A stretch of DNA of 64,000 bases from Gammaproteobacteria bacterium (GTDB lineage: Bacteria; Pseudomonadota; Gammaproteobacteria; SZUA-140). Both the position numbers and the translations under genes were made by a program. Below the pieces are notes generated by a model, which saw only the letters and a list, made by a program, of their open reading frames with translations, had not been told where the DNA came from and searched no databases. Every line of letters begins with the position of its first letter. Position 1 is the stretch's first letter. This document shows positions 1 through 13,682 of the stretch, one piece after another. The stretch is from contig WFVD01000021.1 of the NCBI GenBank assembly GCA_015491865.1, forward strand, positions 1 to 64,000, in the 5' to 3' direction.

Positions 1-3000
1 GGCCTCTGAATTAAACCAAGCGGGTCAGTAAAGTTCTGCGGCGAGTTCCCCACATAGGTATACGGATTCAAACCACCACGAAATCCAATCGGATCACGCT
101 GGGTAAAACGCCCCATGGTGGAATCGTAATAACGGGCTCGGAAGTAACTCAATCCCGTCGCATCCATCTCACGCCCGGTAAAACCAAACGGTGTACTACC
201 GGTACTGGCAATCACACTGCCCCAGGCATCAAAACGTGTACTGGCCTGAGTTACCCCTGCTGTGTCACTCACGGCAACCACAGAACCCAGGCCATCGTTA
301 TGATAATAACTGGCATCACCAGCGGTGCTACGGATGATGCGTTTATCTAATCCGGTATAGGTGTAATGAGCTAGCGCAGCGCCCCAGCTAGCGCTGTATT
401 CTGACCAAATACTCGGGCCACTGTAAACATAACGATTGGAGGTTCCACCGGATGTTTTTTCGATGCGACGGCCTTCATGATCATAGGCGTAGGTTTCGGT
501 GCTGATGTTACTACCCGACACCTGCACCAAACGTTCCTGCGCATCATAGGTCAGCGCTCGTGTCACACCACTCTCATTTTTACTAATCATATTGCCACTG
601 TCATCATAGCCAAAACTGGCGACAACCGTGCCGGTATCTGAATCGCTACGGATTTCGTTCAGCTGTTGGGCACTGTCATATAGATAGTGGTAAGCCGAAC
701 TACCATTAGGCTGACGAGTACGGCGGTTGTTAAACTGATCATAACCATAAGATTCAACCAGAGTAGTCCCGCCATTTTGATAGACAGATGACATGCGGTC
801 GAGGTTGTCATAGTTATAGGTATATGAGGTCGTAGTGCCGACGATATTTTCGACATGGCTGGTACGGCGACCCACGTTGTCATAACCATACTGATGCTGA
901 CTGATCTGCCCCTGGCTGGTGCTATTGGTCAACAGCTGGAGCTTATTGCCAGTATCGTAGCTATATTTAGCACTAACACCATTGGCCATGCTGGTTTCTT
1001 GCAGTCTGCCACCGGCATCGAAGAGGAAGTTAACCCGTTCACCATTCGGCGCAAGGATCGCTGTGAGACGGCTGGCAGCATCATAGAGGAAGTCACTGCG
1101 TTTATCTTCACTGTCTGCAATACTATTGAGCTGGCCACCGGGGCTGAAGTCATAATTGAGGGTCTTGTTACCTCGGCTATCAGTGATTGCGTTCAGCCGC
1201 TGCGCCTCATCATAGCCATAGGTGTAGCTCACCTCCGGCGCGGTGACCAGGGTAAGTTGGCCCAGCGGGTTATATTGGTAGCTAGTGATATGCGGACTTG
1301 GGTCTGATGCATTGAGTTTCGCAGTTTTGGTAGTCATCAACCCATTACGTGCGTGGTCGTAATCGAGACTCACAATATGACCATTGGCCTTTTGTGTGCT
1401 GACCAAGTTGCCGTGGTCATCATAAACGTTACTGGTGGCCTTGCCGTTAGCATCGGTTTCGGTCACCAGGCGACCGAAATCGTCATAGGTGTAAGTGGCT
1501 TGTACGGCCAACACATCGGCACCCGAGGCACCACTGGCATTTGCGGTGTAACCCGCTTCAATCATTTCAACAAAGCCCAGAGTTGTGTAGGTAGTCACGG
1601 TGACCTGACGAATGGAATTGAGGCCATAGCTGTTATGCACAGGGCCGACCTTCCTTACCGGGCGATTGAGCGCATCATATTCGGTCAGATTTTCACGGCC
1701 GATGTTATCAACCGTTCTAACCACATTACCGCTATTGTCGTAGAAATACTCCAGCGTACGACTATCGGGACTGGTGGTAAGCCTGAGCTGACCATTTTGT
1801 GCAGCGCCGTAGTAGTCCGAATAGGTCGTATTGCCATTTGGATCGGTGACCGAGACCGGGCGACCGCCAATATCATATTGGGTATGAACGGCACGACCAT
1901 GTTCATCATAAGCACGAGTGAGGCGGTTAAGGCCATCATACTCAAAGTGGACGCTGTAACCATCCGGGTTGGTGACCTTCAGTGCATTACCAATCTCATC
2001 ATAAACCGTTTCTGTTCGATGGCCTGCAATATTACGCTTATTCACAGGTCGGTTCAGTGAATCATACTCGACAGTATCGTGCAGATAAAAGGCGGTTTTC
2101 CCCGTTGAGTCCAGTGCAATCAGGTGTTCCGCAGTTGGATTACCATTTTCATCGTAATCGTAACCACGCCACTGATTGGTGGCATCCGTTGAGCGCGAGA
2201 CCGCGCCATTTTCATTGTATTCAACTGCGGAGGTATAGAAGTTGTCATTGACCTTTTGAGTGAGGCGACCTAGCTCATCAAAGATTTGAGTGGCTGTAAC
2301 ACAACGATCTACCAGCGTGCCACTTCCATCCTGTTGCAAGCCACAGCGGTTGATTGTGACAGGATTCAGGCCAGTGGCATCGTAGATATATTCGACATAA
2401 GGGCCAGCCTGTGTAGTGAAATCACGGACGTTTTTATTACGAGTGAGGTTGCCGTAACCATCGTACTCATTAACCACCCAGGATTGTATATCCGTGCTTG
2501 CTGGAACATAGGCGCAATCCACCGCTGCGGGTACAATGCCTGTTTTGAGTGCGATGGTGTCGGTGGGCTTACCGTTGGCATCATAACGCTTCAACGTATA
2601 GTTGTTATTGGTGTCTTTGACAGTGCAGTGCTGATCAAGCGCATTGAAACCAGAGTAAGCTATAAAGCTTCCATCCGGCTGCGTGGTTTTGATTAAATTG
2701 CCATCTACATCGTATTCATGCAGTGTCTCATAACCTAGCGACTGTCGAACCACCGTCTCCAGACGTGGATTATTAACATCGTTGTATTCATAAATCCGGC
2801 GCGAACCATCCCCTTGAATATGTTGAATTTGCTGACCATATTCATTGAATAGGTAAGTTTGGCTAATACCTTTTTCATCAATGGCAGTGGTTTCACGACG
2901 GAAACGGTTATAGCGGAAGGTATGTGACTGCCCCATGCTATTGATATGCCTAAATACTTTACCATTAGTATAATACTCAAAAGTCATGCTTTCACCATTG

Positions 3001-6000
3001 GGGCGAGTGAATGACTTCATGGCACGATCAAGGTTAGTGCCATCAGCAGCGGTATAATAGGCATATGTTGTAGCGGCCTCTTGACCGACAACGGCAAGCG
3101 GGGTTTCATAACTCGTCAGGTTGTTATTGGCATAGGTATAGCGATAGGTTCTGCCGCTCCAATCTTCGACACGAGTAATGTGTTGATCGACATCGTCGTA
3201 ATAAAAAGTGAGTGCTCGACCCAAATCATCTGTAACGGTGCTCAGCGCTTCGCCATTATATGCAAAGAAAGTGCTGTTACCATTTCGGTCAGTAACGCGG
3301 GTTAACTTAGCCAGTTGATCGAGCGTGCCTGGTATATTTTCGAAATAATAGGTTAGCCCACTCTTCTCTCTAATGGTGTACTCACCATTAGACTCTCTCT
3401 GGGCCGTAACCTTTAGTTCCTCAGAAAAGCTTGAAAAAGAGGTACCAACAGGGACTCCCGTTACCTGCCCCGCAACACTAAATGTATTGGTGGCACCGCT
3501 GCCGTTCATCCAGACAACCTGGCTGGTCTGGCCATCACCATTATCATCCATAAAAACGAGGTAATGGTTAAGACTGTGCGTCCAACCATAACCCAGCGGG
3601 CCATCCTTTCGGACATTAGAGTTATAGGTACGCTCGAATACGAGATCAAGTCCACCTCGCCCCTTCAGGTGAATATCCCGCTCTGGGTGGTACATATTTC
3701 CTGATACAAGATTGACGGGGTCGCCTGCGAGTGTGGTAAAACCATCGTTAAAACCGGTATACGCACCAAAACCGGGGTCAAATCGAAGAATGTCTACTGA
3801 ACTGCTGGTTCCCTGGTCTCCAAAAAGGCTAACGCTTGTAAACGAGGGGAGCGGAGGGCCATAGCTACCTGTGTTTAGTGCCGGGTTAAAACCGTACCCA
3901 ATTGGGCCGTTACCAACGGTATAGCCGCCTTCTGCAACATAATCACCACTGATAGTGGCATAAATAAAATATGCTGACTCACCATTAACAACCTGATTGT
4001 ATTCCGCCAACCAGACACCCCCACTCCAGTTTTCATAGTTAAACAAACAAACAGGCAGTGTTATTTTATTATAGCCACTATTCAGTAACGCTCTTAATTC
4101 GTTTTTTGTGTTCTCACTGTAGTTAAGGTTATTTGGCGTCGTTGGGCATGACTGATTAAGCATGGCATCAACATCAGCAGCACTCGACAGTTCAACTGTG
4201 GGTAACGCACTTTCATTAACATACTGTAGACCACGTGTAGTGCTAATCGCGTCCATCTGTGCATGCTCCTGCCATACATACGACTCGTATGCCGATGCAT
4301 TCAATGCATTCACCTTGAATGCCTCAAAACTTGAGGCTGGCGTAGCACTATTATTATCGATATTTACATGTCTAAATCTTGCACCCTTGACATCAATCAG
4401 CAGGCCTTCCCCAGAAACAGCAAAAGGGAGATCGAACAGGTAGCTGACCTTCATCGCAGTCGAAACTGTGCCAATATGGTGGCCAGCATCACCCGTTTCA
4501 CCATATAAGCCACCTATGACGTGACTGGAATTGTCTATGTAATTAAAGAATCTATGGCCAATGATATTCAGATATTCACCTAATATTTCATCATGAAGGT
4601 CATTAGGATCTGGTGTTGCTCCCACGCTCGCAAGTAAGCTGCTGGCACGCTCCTCAATCAAGCGATCTGACGACTGAAAAGCAGAAATCATCAGTGTGTA
4701 ATAATTATGCCCTGTAACTTCACTAGCAATACTATTCAGTGGTATTGCTCCGTCACTCACAGTTACTGATATATCAAGGTTATTGTCTTCGCTACATAAG
4801 CCAACCGTAATCGATGACGATGCACTGATAATAGTGCCACCAAGCTTTATGACCGGTTTAACATTAGTTGTCGAGCAGGGTGCTTCGCCTTCTGTATCTA
4901 ACCATGTATCAATATTCGTTTGATCGTTTGCAGTTGCGCCCACAAACGACAAGGTCAGGCGCTTATTGGCCAACTCTGGGAAGTCAATCACTACTGGTGA
5001 AAAAAATGGCTGATCAGTTGCGTTTGAAAGATTAATTGTTGCCTTAACACGATAGGTGCTGGGTATAGTGGTCACATCGGTTGCAGTTCCTGCGCCATAC
5101 CAGCCGACATTGGTGACGACAGTATATGGAAGGGTAGAGGGTAGAATCTCAATATCTGTTTGTACTATTGATCCCTTGTAACCTCCTCCATAGGCTAATG
5201 CGCTCCCAAATGCTTGCTCCATTTGGTCTTGCAACGCTTCGTACGGCATGGTGGTCGAACGTTGATTTAAATAGGCATCAAAATCAAACGAAAAGGATTG
5301 AATATCTGAAACAGTAGTACCATCGGTATACTCCATTTTCTTAAAACTAGGGTCTAGTTCAATCCAATGATATCCACTATTGCTATCCTCTGAACCTCGA
5401 TAGTTATCATATGGAATACACGCAGCCACCCACATATGAACCAGGGACATATTATTACCAGCGTCTAACTCAGAAACCGTATCCAACATGTTCGCCCTCT
5501 GTGTGGCCGAATATACTGTTTTAGTTCCCATCCAATTTAATATTTGATTTTCATCATCAACAAGAACCTGACCAATCATATATCGTGATGGAATATTGGA
5601 GGCCCGGAATAAGGCTATCAGGAGAGAAGCCTGATCTAGTGAATTACCTGAACGGCTTTTCAGTGTTGCCAATGCTCCCTTAACAGAGGCAAAGTAAGGC
5701 ACAAATCGAATATTATTCTTCACATACGAATAGATTTTCACAGCGGAATAATCAAGTTCCTCAGCAAGCGCCATAATTTCAGAGTCAGTGATATCCACTT
5801 CAGGTAACGAACTAGAGACATCAGCTGTCGTATAGCTATAACATGACTGAGTTGCATCAGAAGATACTGGGGGGGGGAGGCGCAGCATTGGCACTTGGAA
5901 TACCTACCGAAGAAAGCAACCTCTTGAGCATTTGCTCATTCAGTTCATCAACCGGAACCACATCTATCTGTGGGGCTGAGTCCAGCACCGGGGTATTCCC

Positions 6001-6687
6001 TTGATCCCTTTCAAATGAAGGAGGAAGTCCTTTCGGATAATCACTTAAATTCCTTTGTATAGGTCTGTCTAACGAAAACCCAGGTTCAGACTGACCGCTA
6101 ACATTGATCCGTGGCGGCATAAGTGCAGCCAATAGTTCTCTGGTACTGTTAATTGCCAACTGCCGCTCATCAGACGTCGAAGCAGAAACGACACTATTCA
6201 GCGAGTTCATTACGCTTAAAAAGCGACCAGAGATTTCTCTCTCCAACTCGGAATTATTTAGGTCATGATCCGATAGCCAGTTCGATACTTCGTCTTCAAT
6301 TGTCAGTAACTCGGCCTGCTTTGACTCCAGCAGGTTGTTGATATGATCAACTTTATCGTTATTTGCATTATCTAGTTTTGCTAGTAACGCGACGGTGTCA
6401 GAAAGATGAAAATCAAGTGATTTACTCAATTCAGTTGAGCGGGTGTTTCCACCCTGCCTGATCCAGGCACCACCAACTTTTGTTACAATGTCATCTTCGC
6501 TTAATACGGCCAGATCTATTTTACTAGTGCCGGAGCTATCGACCTCATTCTCAGACACAGATAAAATTTCATCGTTAGATTGCATGGCTAATCTGTCATA
6601 ACCAAACAGGCCAATGACGACTAATGTAATAAGTACTAAAGAAAAGCGGCCAGAAATGATTTATAGCCAGCCTTGTCGATGATTCAT
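1..6687 (-). pseudogene. Rhs/YD-repeat surface protein, N-terminus interrupted, C-terminus beyond the window edge
   Basis: One minus-strand frame stays open from about 5870 to position 1, so the protein exceeds 2,200 residues. In order it shows a coiled-coil-like N-terminal part (6585-5880), a transglutaminase-like domain (about 5700-5340; GNSLDQASLLIALFRA, then HMW and LDPSF, with the usual catalytic Cys apparently replaced), a DUF6531 module (about 3735-3560; DPVNLVSGNMYHPE) and some 25-30 YD repeats. It reaches the Rhs core terminus with ARYYD, GRFTQRDPIGFRGG and DPLGL at 180-10. The variable toxin tip would lie left of position 1. The best start is ATG at 6687, nine bases after AAGGGA. 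It reads MNHRQGWL and then a TAA stop at 6663-6661, before an intact hydrophobic anchor (FSLVLITLVVIGLFG). A second lesion is a C9 tract (5877-5869) that sends the upstream frame to a stop at 5857; eight Cs would restore it. The gene is either decayed, phase-variable or mis-assembled here. The Rhs identity is certain; the functional state is not. Confidence 0.9.
5869..5877 (-). repeat. C9 homopolymer causing a frameshift in the Rhs gene
   Basis: Nine Gs on the plus strand read as nine Cs in the Rhs coding strand, inside a run of proline codons (NAAPPPP). With nine Cs the upstream frame stops 10 bases later at 5859-5857. With eight Cs it joins the frame that carries the transglutaminase, DUF6531 and YD-repeat parts. 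Tracts like this slip during replication and are also a common sequencing error, so both readings are open. Confidence 0.85.
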
Positions 6688-6773
6688 TGTTTTTAATCCC
6701 TTTTTCAATTTCTTTAAAGGCAATAGATCAACGCCTCCACCCCATTCAACACAGAACCAAATACAATTTAGTA

Positions 6774-7379: not shown

Positions 7380-7632
7380 CTAACTTAGAAACCTAGCGAC
7401 TTGTTGTCCAACAACAAAGATAAACACCAGCTACTCCACCTGCTCTCGCGAATAATCATCAATGACATTAAGCACGTAAAATCGTCGCCTATTACTTAAT
7501 TGATCAGAGACAAAGCCCATTGACCAGCGTTGATTTGTGAACAACGGCATGTCTAGTGGCTCAAGGAAACTGAAGCTTCTTTCTCTTCTCAGTACGCACC
7601 TGAAGCCCTTCCTCGTGTATATCTGACAGGTT
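7380..7632 (-). mobile_element. Remnant of an IS3-family transposase (OrfB)
   Basis: Two minus-strand frames give pieces of an IS3-family OrfB integrase core: EEGLQVRTEKRKKL (7620-7565), then after a stop and frame change FTNQRWSMGFVSDQL and RRRFYVLNVIDDYSREQ (7550-7440). A further frame change gives GQQVARFLS (to about 7385). The motif normally written WSMDF has Gly in place of the first catalytic Asp. Frameshifts, stops and the lack of flanking inverted repeats show that the element is dead. The family call rests on the well-known WSMDFVSD and VIDDYSRE signatures. Confidence 0.75.
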
Positions 7633-8105
7633 CTCTTTTTGTTAGTTAAATTAACTCAGGCATAGTCGAAGGTCATTTAACTTGTTCTTCTGAATGACCA
7701 TGAATAGCAAAGGGATGACTAGTAACCCTCGATAGATCACGCCCCCCCTTAGAGCACTAGCGAGTGGTTACGAAATGCAGAAGCTGTTTTGGCAAACGTA
7801 GAAGTTCTGATACTGTGCATAGCAAGGAAACAACAGCGGACAATGTGATGGAAAAACACCATTGATATTGATGCAGAGAAATCGGAGAAAAGAAATTAAC
7901 GATCACATTTGTGAATGTTTTTTTGACGCGAAAGCAAAACGACTTCTGTTGGAGTAGCGGTACAATCGAAATTTTTATACCACGCGTTAGATAAGAAGCA
8001 CCTCGATTATTAAGCTACCGCAGCAAGAACAATAAATAACCCCAAGACAGAGTCCTTGCAGGGATTTTCTTGCATTCTAAACTGAACACCTACACCAACC
8101 CGCAC

Positions 8106-8151: not shown

Positions 8152-8228
8152 TGGCGTCCCCAAGGGGATTCGAACCCCTGTTACCGCCGTGAAAGGGCGG
8201 TGTCCTAGGCCGTCTAGACGATGGGGAC
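8152..8228 (-). tRNA. tRNA-Glu (anticodon TTC)
   Basis: The minus strand folds as a complete cloverleaf. The acceptor arms are GTCCCCA and TGGGGAC, the anticodon loop is CTTTCAC with TTC in the middle, the T arm is GGGGTTCGAATCCCC, and CCA is encoded. It is the second gene of a two-tRNA operon and sits beside gltX, whose product charges it. Its 3' end faces the low-GC Rhs block. Confidence 0.95.
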
Positions 8229-11745: not shown

Positions 11746-13682
11746 GACTCATCTCCACGAGGCGGCTGGCCGCCGCTGCGATCTTTTGCGCGTTGTGACT
11801 GATATTGAAATTTACGCCGCAACAGCCCACCCGGGTCATCAGGAATACGGCGCAGCCATTGATCATTTGCGCTCTGGATCTCTGCCTGCGCCTCACTCAG
11901 CTCACTGGCAGTCGCACTGACCCTCTCATCAGATGGCGGCCTATCGCCTTTACTATCTTCAGACGGCTGCCCATTATCCGCCATCGCCTCACCATTTTCA
12001 GCGGGTGGTGGCACCATTTCATTTTGTGATGCTGCCTGCTGTGATCCCTCTTGCGACTCACCCGTTTCACCCTGCGGTGACGATTGCTGTGGCTCCATCG
12101 CGTCTGACAGATCGCCACTCGAGCCGCCAGAGCGCGACTGCTGCTGGGTATTTCCCTGCTGCGACTCGCCCGACTGTGACGGCTCTCCTTCTTCATCCGA
12201 TGCGTCGGATGGCGACTCATCAGACGTGGACTCACCCGAGTCGCCCGACTCCTCCGACTCCTGCTCCAGCTGTCGCTTTACCAGCTCGAGATTATATTTT
12301 GCATCGGCATGTTCTGGCTCTCGCTTCAGCGCCTGCTCATAGGCGTCGATCGCAGCCTGCCACTGTTTGAGCTGTGCGTAAGCATTGCCTTTGTTATAAT
12401 AGGCATCTGCGCTTTCAACCCCCGCCAGCGCGTCGATCGCTTGCTGGTAATCACCATTACGATAGTGAGCCGCAGCCTGCCACTCCCTGTTCTCAAATAG
12501 CGCGGCCGCCTGTGCAGCATCACTGTTTTTAAAAGCCTGTGAAGCGCGCTGATCCGGTGTTAACCAGAGTGCAGCCCACCACGATGAAGGTTGCTCTGCC
12601 GCCGTCGCTTGCGCGTCGTGCGGTACTGTTGCGATCACTGGCAGTAGTACCAGGCAGACCATCAACAGCTGACCACGACGAAAGACCACCAGCACCAGCG
12701 GTATTACCAGCAGCAGCAGCCATGGCCCCTCTTCATACCACTGATCCGCCTTGAACCCCTGCGACGCTTCTAATGAGAGTTCGCTCTCAAGCCACGCCCC
12801 ATCGAGCAGGGTTGCGATATCGAGATCATCAACCCGCATCGTCTGATAATGGCCGCCCCCCTGCTGAGCAAGATCACGCAGCGCCTGCTCATCCAGTCGC
12901 GGGATCACAATCGCACCGCTGCTATCTTTTAAAAAGCCACCTTCAGGCAGGGCAATGGGAGCCCCTTCAGCGCTACCGACACCCAGTATCGAGAGGCGGT
13001 AGCCAGCCTCCGTTAATGCCGCAACAGCACTTTCAAGCTTATCGGTGGGGACGTTCTCCAGCCCATCTGAGATCAGCAACAGCTCTCCATGCTGTGCGCC
13101 TGCCTGGATTAACAGCTGCTGCGCCATGTCGATCGCAAGATCGGGACGACTCCCCTGCTGCGGCATCAATGTTGTCTTTAACGAGCTGACCTGTGCAACG
13201 ATCGTTGCTGCATCTTCAGTTAATGGCGAGACAACAAAGGCGTCCGCAGCGTAAACAATCAGCGCCGACTGCCCCTCTTTACGCTGGTTAAGAATATCGA
13301 TCAATTTCAGTCGGGCGCGCGTCAGCCGTGTCGGTTTCACATCGGTAGCATCCATTGAGCGTGATAGATCCAGCAGCAGTACCTGCGCCGACTGGTCACG
13401 AAAGACCGGCTGCTCAAGCTGTTTCCACGCCGGGCCGGCCAGCGCGGTGATCGTCAGCAGACCGACCAGGGCAACTATCAATAACATGCCGCGTCGCTGG
13501 CGCGCACCACGCTCACTAATCAGCAAATGGGGCAGTAGCGCCGCATCACACACCGTTTGCCAGCGACGACTCTGCAGGCGGGAACGCCGTAATTGCCAGA
13601 GCATGAACAGCAGCAGTGGCAGTAGCAGTAGCCACCACGGCCGCAGAAAATGAAACCCCTGCGCTATTTCATTCAGGTTCAT
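11739..13682 (-). CDS. BatB/BatC fusion: membrane VWA protein with TPR repeats
   Basis: The best start is ATG 13682 (MNLNEIAQGFHF), which overlaps the batA stop as ATGA; this gives 647 residues. Two membrane segments (about 14-30 and 66-84) precede a von Willebrand A domain with the MIDAS motif DLSRSM (Asp105, Ser107, Ser109). A third membrane helix lies near residues 305-335. Two or three TPR units follow (NKGNAYAQLKQWQAAIDAY), then a long tail of Ser, Glu, Gln and Gly, probably disordered. BatB and BatC are separate genes in some bacteria and fused in many gammaproteobacteria. VWA proteins of this type are thought to work with the MoxR ATPase in assembling or maturing envelope targets; the target is unknown. 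Confidence 0.9.
   Translation of the reverse strand: MNLNEIAQGFHFLRPWWLLLLPLLLFMLWQLRRSRLQSRRWQTVCDAALLPHLLISERGARQRRGMLLIVALVGLLTITALAGPAWKQLEQPVFRDQSAQVLLLDLSRSMDATDVKPTRLTRARLKLIDILNQRKEGQSALIVYAADAFVVSPLTEDAATIVAQVSSLKTTLMPQQGSRPDLAIDMAQQLLIQAGAQHGELLLISDGLENVPTDKLESAVAALTEAGYRLSILGVGSAEGAPIALPEGGFLKDSSGAIVIPRLDEQALRDLAQQGGGHYQTMRVDDLDIATLLDGAWLESELSLEASQGFKADQWYEEGPWLLLLVIPLVLVVFRRGQLLMVCLVLLPVIATVPHDAQATAAEQPSSWWAALWLTPDQRASQAFKNSDAAQAAALFENREWQAAAHYRNGDYQQAIDALAGVESADAYYNKGNAYAQLKQWQAAIDAYEQALKREPEHADAKYNLELVKRQLEQESEESGDSGESTSDESPSDASDEEGEPSQSGESQQGNTQQQSRSGGSSGDLSDAMEPQQSSPQGETGESQEGSQQAASQNEMVPPPAENGEAMADNGQPSEDSKGDRPPSDERVSATASELSEAQAEIQSANDQWLRRIPDDPGGLLRRKFQYQSQRAKDRSGGQPPRGDESW

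What the first reader, a model, noticed from the sequence alone, without database searches (positions are those of the whole stretch)
5850..6690. Rhs giant gene with a dead start: in-frame TAA in the signal anchor and a C9 slip tract
Seen: the ribosome binding site and ATG at 6687 give MNHRQGWL and then TAA, followed in the same frame by an intact hydrophobic anchor and a coiled-coil region. A C9 run at 5877-5869 then ends this frame, while the next 5.8 kb stay open in the frame that eight Cs would give. An intact 5.8-kb frame behind two lesions suggests recent loss, or on/off switching by the C tract. The nonsense codon argues for decay rather than switching alone.
Basis: partly seen in the sequence, partly recalled or inferred. 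Interest (0 to 1): 0.6.

Follow-up and report, generated by a model that had tools for sequence, protein, structure and literature searches.

The report
Recently broken giant Rhs gene
A giant, probably horizontally acquired Rhs (toxin-type) surface gene has been disabled near its start by a stop codon and a frame break so recently that the rest of it is still intact, which is an ordinary case of gene loss rather than a new kind of switch.

Summary
ATG 6687 reads MNHRQGWL then TAA (6661-6663), and a C9 tract (5877-5869) puts the anchor/coil part out of frame with the 5.86-kb Rhs part. Relatives show this is one gene. The nearest (L035, Ectothiorhodospiraceae MAG) has one 2427-aa frame with the same start, and 40 of 42 readable relatives have a full N-terminus in frame across the junction. 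The gene continues on contig C3 (151-base exact overlap) into a variable tip with a normal stop. Constraint was strong until recently (dN/dS about 0.08 and 0.25 against L035). The lack of further lesions in 5.86 kb caps neutral decay at about 0.25-0.67% divergence. C-tract switching is unsupported: no relative has a C/G run above 6 at the junction, the TAA would still block expression, and the genome's other 24 C/G runs of 9-11 mostly lie inside unbroken frames. That last point also argues against homopolymer assembly error. The locus is a low-GC insertion at the 3' end of tRNA-Glu, and nine congeners lack its N-terminal part. Verdict: recent pseudogenisation of an accessory polymorphic-toxin-type Rhs gene. 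Real but ordinary. Reads were not available.

The parts
6685..6687 (-). start codon of the giant Rhs gene, with upstream AAGGG ribosome-binding-like site
   Evidence: homologous start and upstream context in L035 (MNNQKGWLK...)
6661..6663 (-). in-frame TAA, codon 9; a sense codon in L035
   Evidence: no ATG/GTG/TTG between it and ATG 6585
6586..6660 (-). hydrophobic signal anchor behind the TAA, still in frame
   Evidence: aligned with the N-termini of relatives
5881..6585 (-). coiled-coil-like N-terminal region (dN/dS of the whole 5' part 0.25 against L035)
5869..5877 (-). C9 tract in the proline linker where the reading frame breaks; only run of 8 or more in the gene
5857..5859 (-). TGA that ends the upstream frame after the tract
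3795..5864 (-). transglutaminase-like domain (PF01841, E 1e-13) with the catalytic-Cys position read as Ser, plus a following conserved region
3..3794 (-). DUF6531, RHS/YD repeats and Rhs-associated core; the frame runs off the contig at the core/tip junction
   Evidence: the 3' end lies on G000:C3 (L168 12425-13125, minus strand)
7444..7640 (-). remnant of an IS3-type transposase in the ORF-poor stretch between tRNA-Glu and the Rhs gene
8152..8228 (-). tRNA-Glu whose 3' end is the boundary of the variable island in this genus

Best explanation
This is a single giant Rhs gene of about 2,400 codons: signal anchor, coiled coil, degenerate transglutaminase-like domain, DUF6531, YD repeats, core, and a variable toxin-type tip followed by a candidate immunity gene. 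It entered an accessory island at the 3' end of tRNA-Glu. It was maintained under purifying selection and then recently inactivated at its 5' end by two disabling changes, a nonsense codon in the leader and a frame break at a slippery C9 run. Either change alone removes the full-length exported protein, and the second is then neutral (order inferred). The rest is intact because too little time has passed. Shown: both lesions, intact relatives, past constraint, the island position. Inferred: that no functional protein is made, the order of events, and the reason for loss (cost, or loss of the benefit of an antagonism factor).
For: The nearest relative L035 has an uninterrupted 2427-aa frame with the same start and a homologue of the downstream protein found on C3. 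Of 43 relatives, 42 can be read upstream and 40 have a full-length N-terminus in frame across the junction. dN/dS against L035 is 0.12/1.44 for the 3' part and 0.24/0.95 for the 5' part. Zero further stops or frame breaks in 5862 bases caps neutral decay at about 0.25-0.67% divergence for indel/substitution ratios of 0.2-0.05. The N-terminal part is absent from nine congeners. Congeners carry unrelated cargo at the same tRNA-Glu site, and GC is 40-51% against 58-60% beyond gltX. Other members of the family are also broken (L042, L050, L057, L071, L073), so loss recurs.
Against: No reads or sister strains were available, so a consensus error or a mixed population is not excluded. Relative-rate tests show only a weak excess of changes on the window branch in the 3' part (30 vs 14, p 0.02, one of several tests) and none in the 5' part (5 vs 4). 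Some expression of the 3' part from an internal start (GTG 5894) cannot be ruled out from sequence.
Confidence: 0.8

Rival explanations
1. Phase-variable gene: the C9 tract slips during replication and toggles the Rhs gene on and off, and the assembled cell is in an off state.
For: C9 in coding sequence is a typical slip substrate and is the only run of 8 or more in the gene. The frame behind it is fully open. C/G runs of 9 or more are about twice the first-order Markov expectation in this genome (25 vs 13).
Against: The TAA at codon 9 keeps the gene off whatever the tract length. No relative has a C/G run above 6 at the junction; L035 reads CTCCAATAACC there. The genome's other 24 runs mostly lie in unbroken frames, several housekeeping-like by local sequence, not in recognisable contingency genes.
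Confidence: 0.06
2. Assembly or consensus error at one or both sites, with an intact gene in the organism.
For: The genome is a draft of 31 contigs, and the Rhs gene itself is broken by a contig end at the core/tip junction, which hints at population variants.
Against: About 20 other runs of C/G 9-11 in this assembly sit in long unbroken frames, at least 12 of them with some 80 or more codons open on both sides, so run lengths appear well called. A nonsense substitution is not a usual assembly error, and two independent errors in one gene are unlikely.
Confidence: 0.08
3. A split but functional locus: a 242-aa protein from ATG 6585 and a 1964+ aa Rhs protein from GTG 5894, translated by coupling across the overlapping frames (or by low-level slippage on the C run).
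For: Both frames are open and overlap by 38 bases (5857-5894), and a TAGGT lies 7 nt before GTG 5894. There is no sign of relaxation in the 5' part.
Against: Both products would lack the N-terminal anchor or signal that nearly all relatives keep. The only relative broken near this point is L050, and its break lies further upstream.
Confidence: 0.05

Closest known systems
Rhs/YD-repeat polymorphic toxins (DUF6531, RHS_repeat PF05593, Rhs_assc_core TIGR03696)
   Same: DUF6531, YD repeats, associated core ending ...DPLGL, variable C-terminal tip, small gene directly behind it
   Different: N-terminal anchor, coiled coil and degenerate transglutaminase-like domain rather than a PAAR-type leader (the latter from general knowledge); dead at the 5' end in this genome
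L035 orthologue, Ectothiorhodospiraceae MAG FCS_M_Gamma_062.3
   Same: Same architecture, same start, homologous downstream protein; 64% (5' part) and 81% (3' part) amino-acid identity
   Different: One uninterrupted 2427-codon frame, no C run at the junction, a different tip, and a large transposase-like gene upstream instead of tRNA-Glu
Phase-variable genes with poly-C/G tracts (as known from Neisseria and Campylobacter; general knowledge)
   Same: A C9 run inside the coding sequence
   Different: Tract not conserved in relatives, TAA upstream, other runs of the genome lie mostly in unbroken ordinary frames

Membership tests
Rhs/YD-repeat polymorphic toxin gene | RHS/YD repeats | tested here: met
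   PF05593 E 4e-60, 7 stretches; 8 hits in the genome, all in this gene
Rhs/YD-repeat polymorphic toxin gene | Rhs-associated core followed by a variable tip | tested here: met
   TIGR03696 E 1e-23; the tip on C3 has no significant Pfam or NCBIfam match, and the L035 tip finds no match in this genome
Rhs/YD-repeat polymorphic toxin gene | immunity gene next to the tip | tested here: inconclusive
   A 198-aa gene directly follows the tip, with a Transgly-domain match (PF00912, E 2e-10); immunity not tested
Rhs/YD-repeat polymorphic toxin gene | toxic activity of the tip | not testable with these tools
   needs experiment
Pseudogene | disabling lesions relative to intact relatives | tested here: met
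   TAA and frame break against L035 and 39 other relatives
Pseudogene | no functional product | not testable with these tools
   needs transcripts or peptides
Phase-variable contingency gene | repeat tract conserved at the same site in related alleles | tested here: not met
   longest C/G run at the junction in 43 relatives is 6
Phase-variable contingency gene | a change of tract length alone switches expression | tested here: not met
   the upstream TAA keeps the frame closed
Phase-variable contingency gene | tract length varies within a clone | not testable with these tools
   no reads available

The most novel reading that the evidence does not exclude
The population is mixed: cells with and without these lesions, and with different tips on a common core, coexist, so that the giant Rhs gene is kept as an on/off and tip-switching diversity locus. 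The contig break at the core/tip junction is the only hint.
Probability: 0.06. Interest if true: 0.45.

Novelty: new member of a known kind. Interest (0 to 1): 0.2.

Why it matters
It is a clean snapshot of early loss of a large antagonism-type gene: two lesions at the 5' end and a still intact body of more than 6 kb. It warns that annotating the 5.8-kb frame as an active Rhs toxin would be wrong. It also documents an Rhs family with a degenerate transglutaminase-like domain whose copies are broken in several genomes. It does not reveal a new mechanism.

Tried and rejected
Searched viral contigs (no relatives), phage records with the 5' region (none) and plasmids (distant Rhs proteins only). 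Looked for sister alleles in the nine other genomes of the genus and the rest of the order: none carry the N-terminal part. Looked for L035's tip in this genome: absent. Looked for standard starts between the TAA and ATG 6585: none. Tested relaxation by relative rates: weak and inconclusive. Considered that both lesions falling in the first 11% of the gene is meaningful (uniform p 0.013). This is post hoc, and the C9 run is the only long homopolymer, so its place is set by the sequence. Literature searches for Rhs phase variation or Rhs with transglutaminase gave nothing to the point.

Full report
WHAT IS THERE. The minus strand reads ATG (6687) AAT CAT CGA CAA GGC TGG CTA TAA (6663-6661). It then continues without a stop through a hydrophobic stretch (IISGRFSLVLITLVVIGLFGYDRL) and a coiled-coil-like region to a C9 run at 5877-5869, and ends at TGA 5859-5857. 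Another frame is open from 5894 down to the end of the contig (1964 codons). All coordinates of the finding are right.

ONE GENE, NOT TWO. Pfam and NCBIfam give, from 5' to 3' behind the tract: a Transglut_core domain, DUF6531, seven RHS repeat stretches and the Rhs-associated core. The closest relative found, L035 (Ectothiorhodospiraceae MAG), encodes the whole arrangement in one 2427-codon frame. It starts MNNQKGWLKHIPPGLLSFNYFALMTVVLVAIGWIGYEKF, against MNHRQGWL*IISGRFSLVLITLVVIGLFGYDRL here, with the same AAAGGGATTAAAA leader. Of 43 relatives examined, one (L036) is cut by its contig end. Of the other 42, 40 have a full-length N-terminus (at least 200 residues) in frame with the transglutaminase-like region, most with a clear hydrophobic segment. 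Two (L050, L071) are broken upstream. Three more (L042, L057, L073) are broken further down, and L047 ends early without being looked into. Broken copies therefore occur elsewhere too.

THE 3' END. The window starts at base 1 of contig C21. Its first 151 bases are identical to the last 151 bases of contig C3. C3 carries the end of the gene: a tip of about 180 residues after ...DPLGL, a normal stop, a 198-aa gene with a partial but significant transglycosylase-domain match, and a large secreted cadherin/CBM/malectin protein whose homologue also follows the Rhs gene in L035. The tip has no significant Pfam or NCBIfam match. The rest of the gene is therefore intact up to its stop.

HOW OLD ARE THE LESIONS. 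Against L035 the 3' part has dN 0.12 and dS 1.44, and the 5' part dN 0.24 and dS 0.95. dS is near saturation, so the two copies parted long ago and were kept as protein for nearly all that time. If the 3' part had evolved neutrally since inactivation, a further stop or frame break would be expected with 95% probability after 15-39 substitutions in 5862 bases, i.e. 0.25-0.67% divergence. None is seen. The lesions are therefore recent, or the 3' part is still under some selection. Relative-rate tests give at most a weak excess on this branch (30 vs 14 in the 3' part, p 0.02; 5 vs 4 in the 5' part; several tests were made).

SWITCH, ERROR OR DECAY. The C9 run is the only run of 8 or more in the gene and lies in a proline linker that varies among relatives. 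L035 has CTCCAATAACC there, and the longest C/G run at the junction in any of 43 relatives is 6. The genome holds 25 distinct C/G runs of 9-11 (about 13 expected from a first-order model of the window). The other 24 were inspected. Most lie inside long unbroken frames, several with the local sequence of ordinary metabolic genes (judged by eye, for example a PPIase-like and an ABC-F-like context), and none was seen to break a gene as this one does. This argues against a set of switch genes and also against homopolymer miscalls in this assembly. A switch at the tract alone could not express the gene while the TAA stands.

WHERE IT SITS. The gene lies beyond the 3' end of tRNA-Glu. In congeners DNA similarity stops within a few bases of that tRNA end, and three of them carry unrelated cargo there. 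Nine congeners lack the N-terminal part; one of them, G004, has a different, distant Rhs-type gene. GC of the stretch is 40-51%, against 58-60% beyond gltX. The 1.4 kb between tRNA and gene has no substantial ORF and holds a decayed IS3-like transposase piece. This is an accessory island, so loss of the gene is unremarkable.

VERDICT. The likeliest reading is recent inactivation of a horizontally acquired giant Rhs gene, about 0.8. Reads are needed to exclude a mixed population. Interest is modest.

Noticed in passing
window 1-151; L168 (G000:C3) 12975-13125: Contigs C21 and C3 overlap exactly by 151 bases and C21 ends right at the Rhs core/tip junction; the assembler may have met more than one tip on this core.
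   Followed up: partly
window 3795-5864 (near 5630): The transglutaminase-like domain keeps conserved His and Asp positions, but the catalytic Cys position reads Ser here and Ala in the nearest relatives (alignment with 3isr: GVCRDFA vs GNSLDQA), so the domain is probably not an active enzyme in this family.
   Followed up: partly
L168 11814-12410: The gene directly behind the tip encodes a 198-aa protein with an N-terminal hydrophobic segment and a partial transglycosylase (PF00912) domain, a possible immunity protein for a cell-wall-directed tip.
   Followed up: partly
L148, L149, L150 (congeners): The 3' end of tRNA-Glu behind gltX is an insertion hot spot in the genus: by eye a DNA-sulfur-modification-like cluster (L148), a site-specific recombinase-like gene (L149), or ABC-transport genes (L150).
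   Followed up: partly
whole genome G000: 25 distinct C/G runs of 9-11, about twice the first-order expectation, mostly inside unbroken frames.
   Followed up: partly
window 7444-7640: Degenerate IS3-type transposase remnant on the minus strand in the stretch upstream of the Rhs gene.
   Followed up: no
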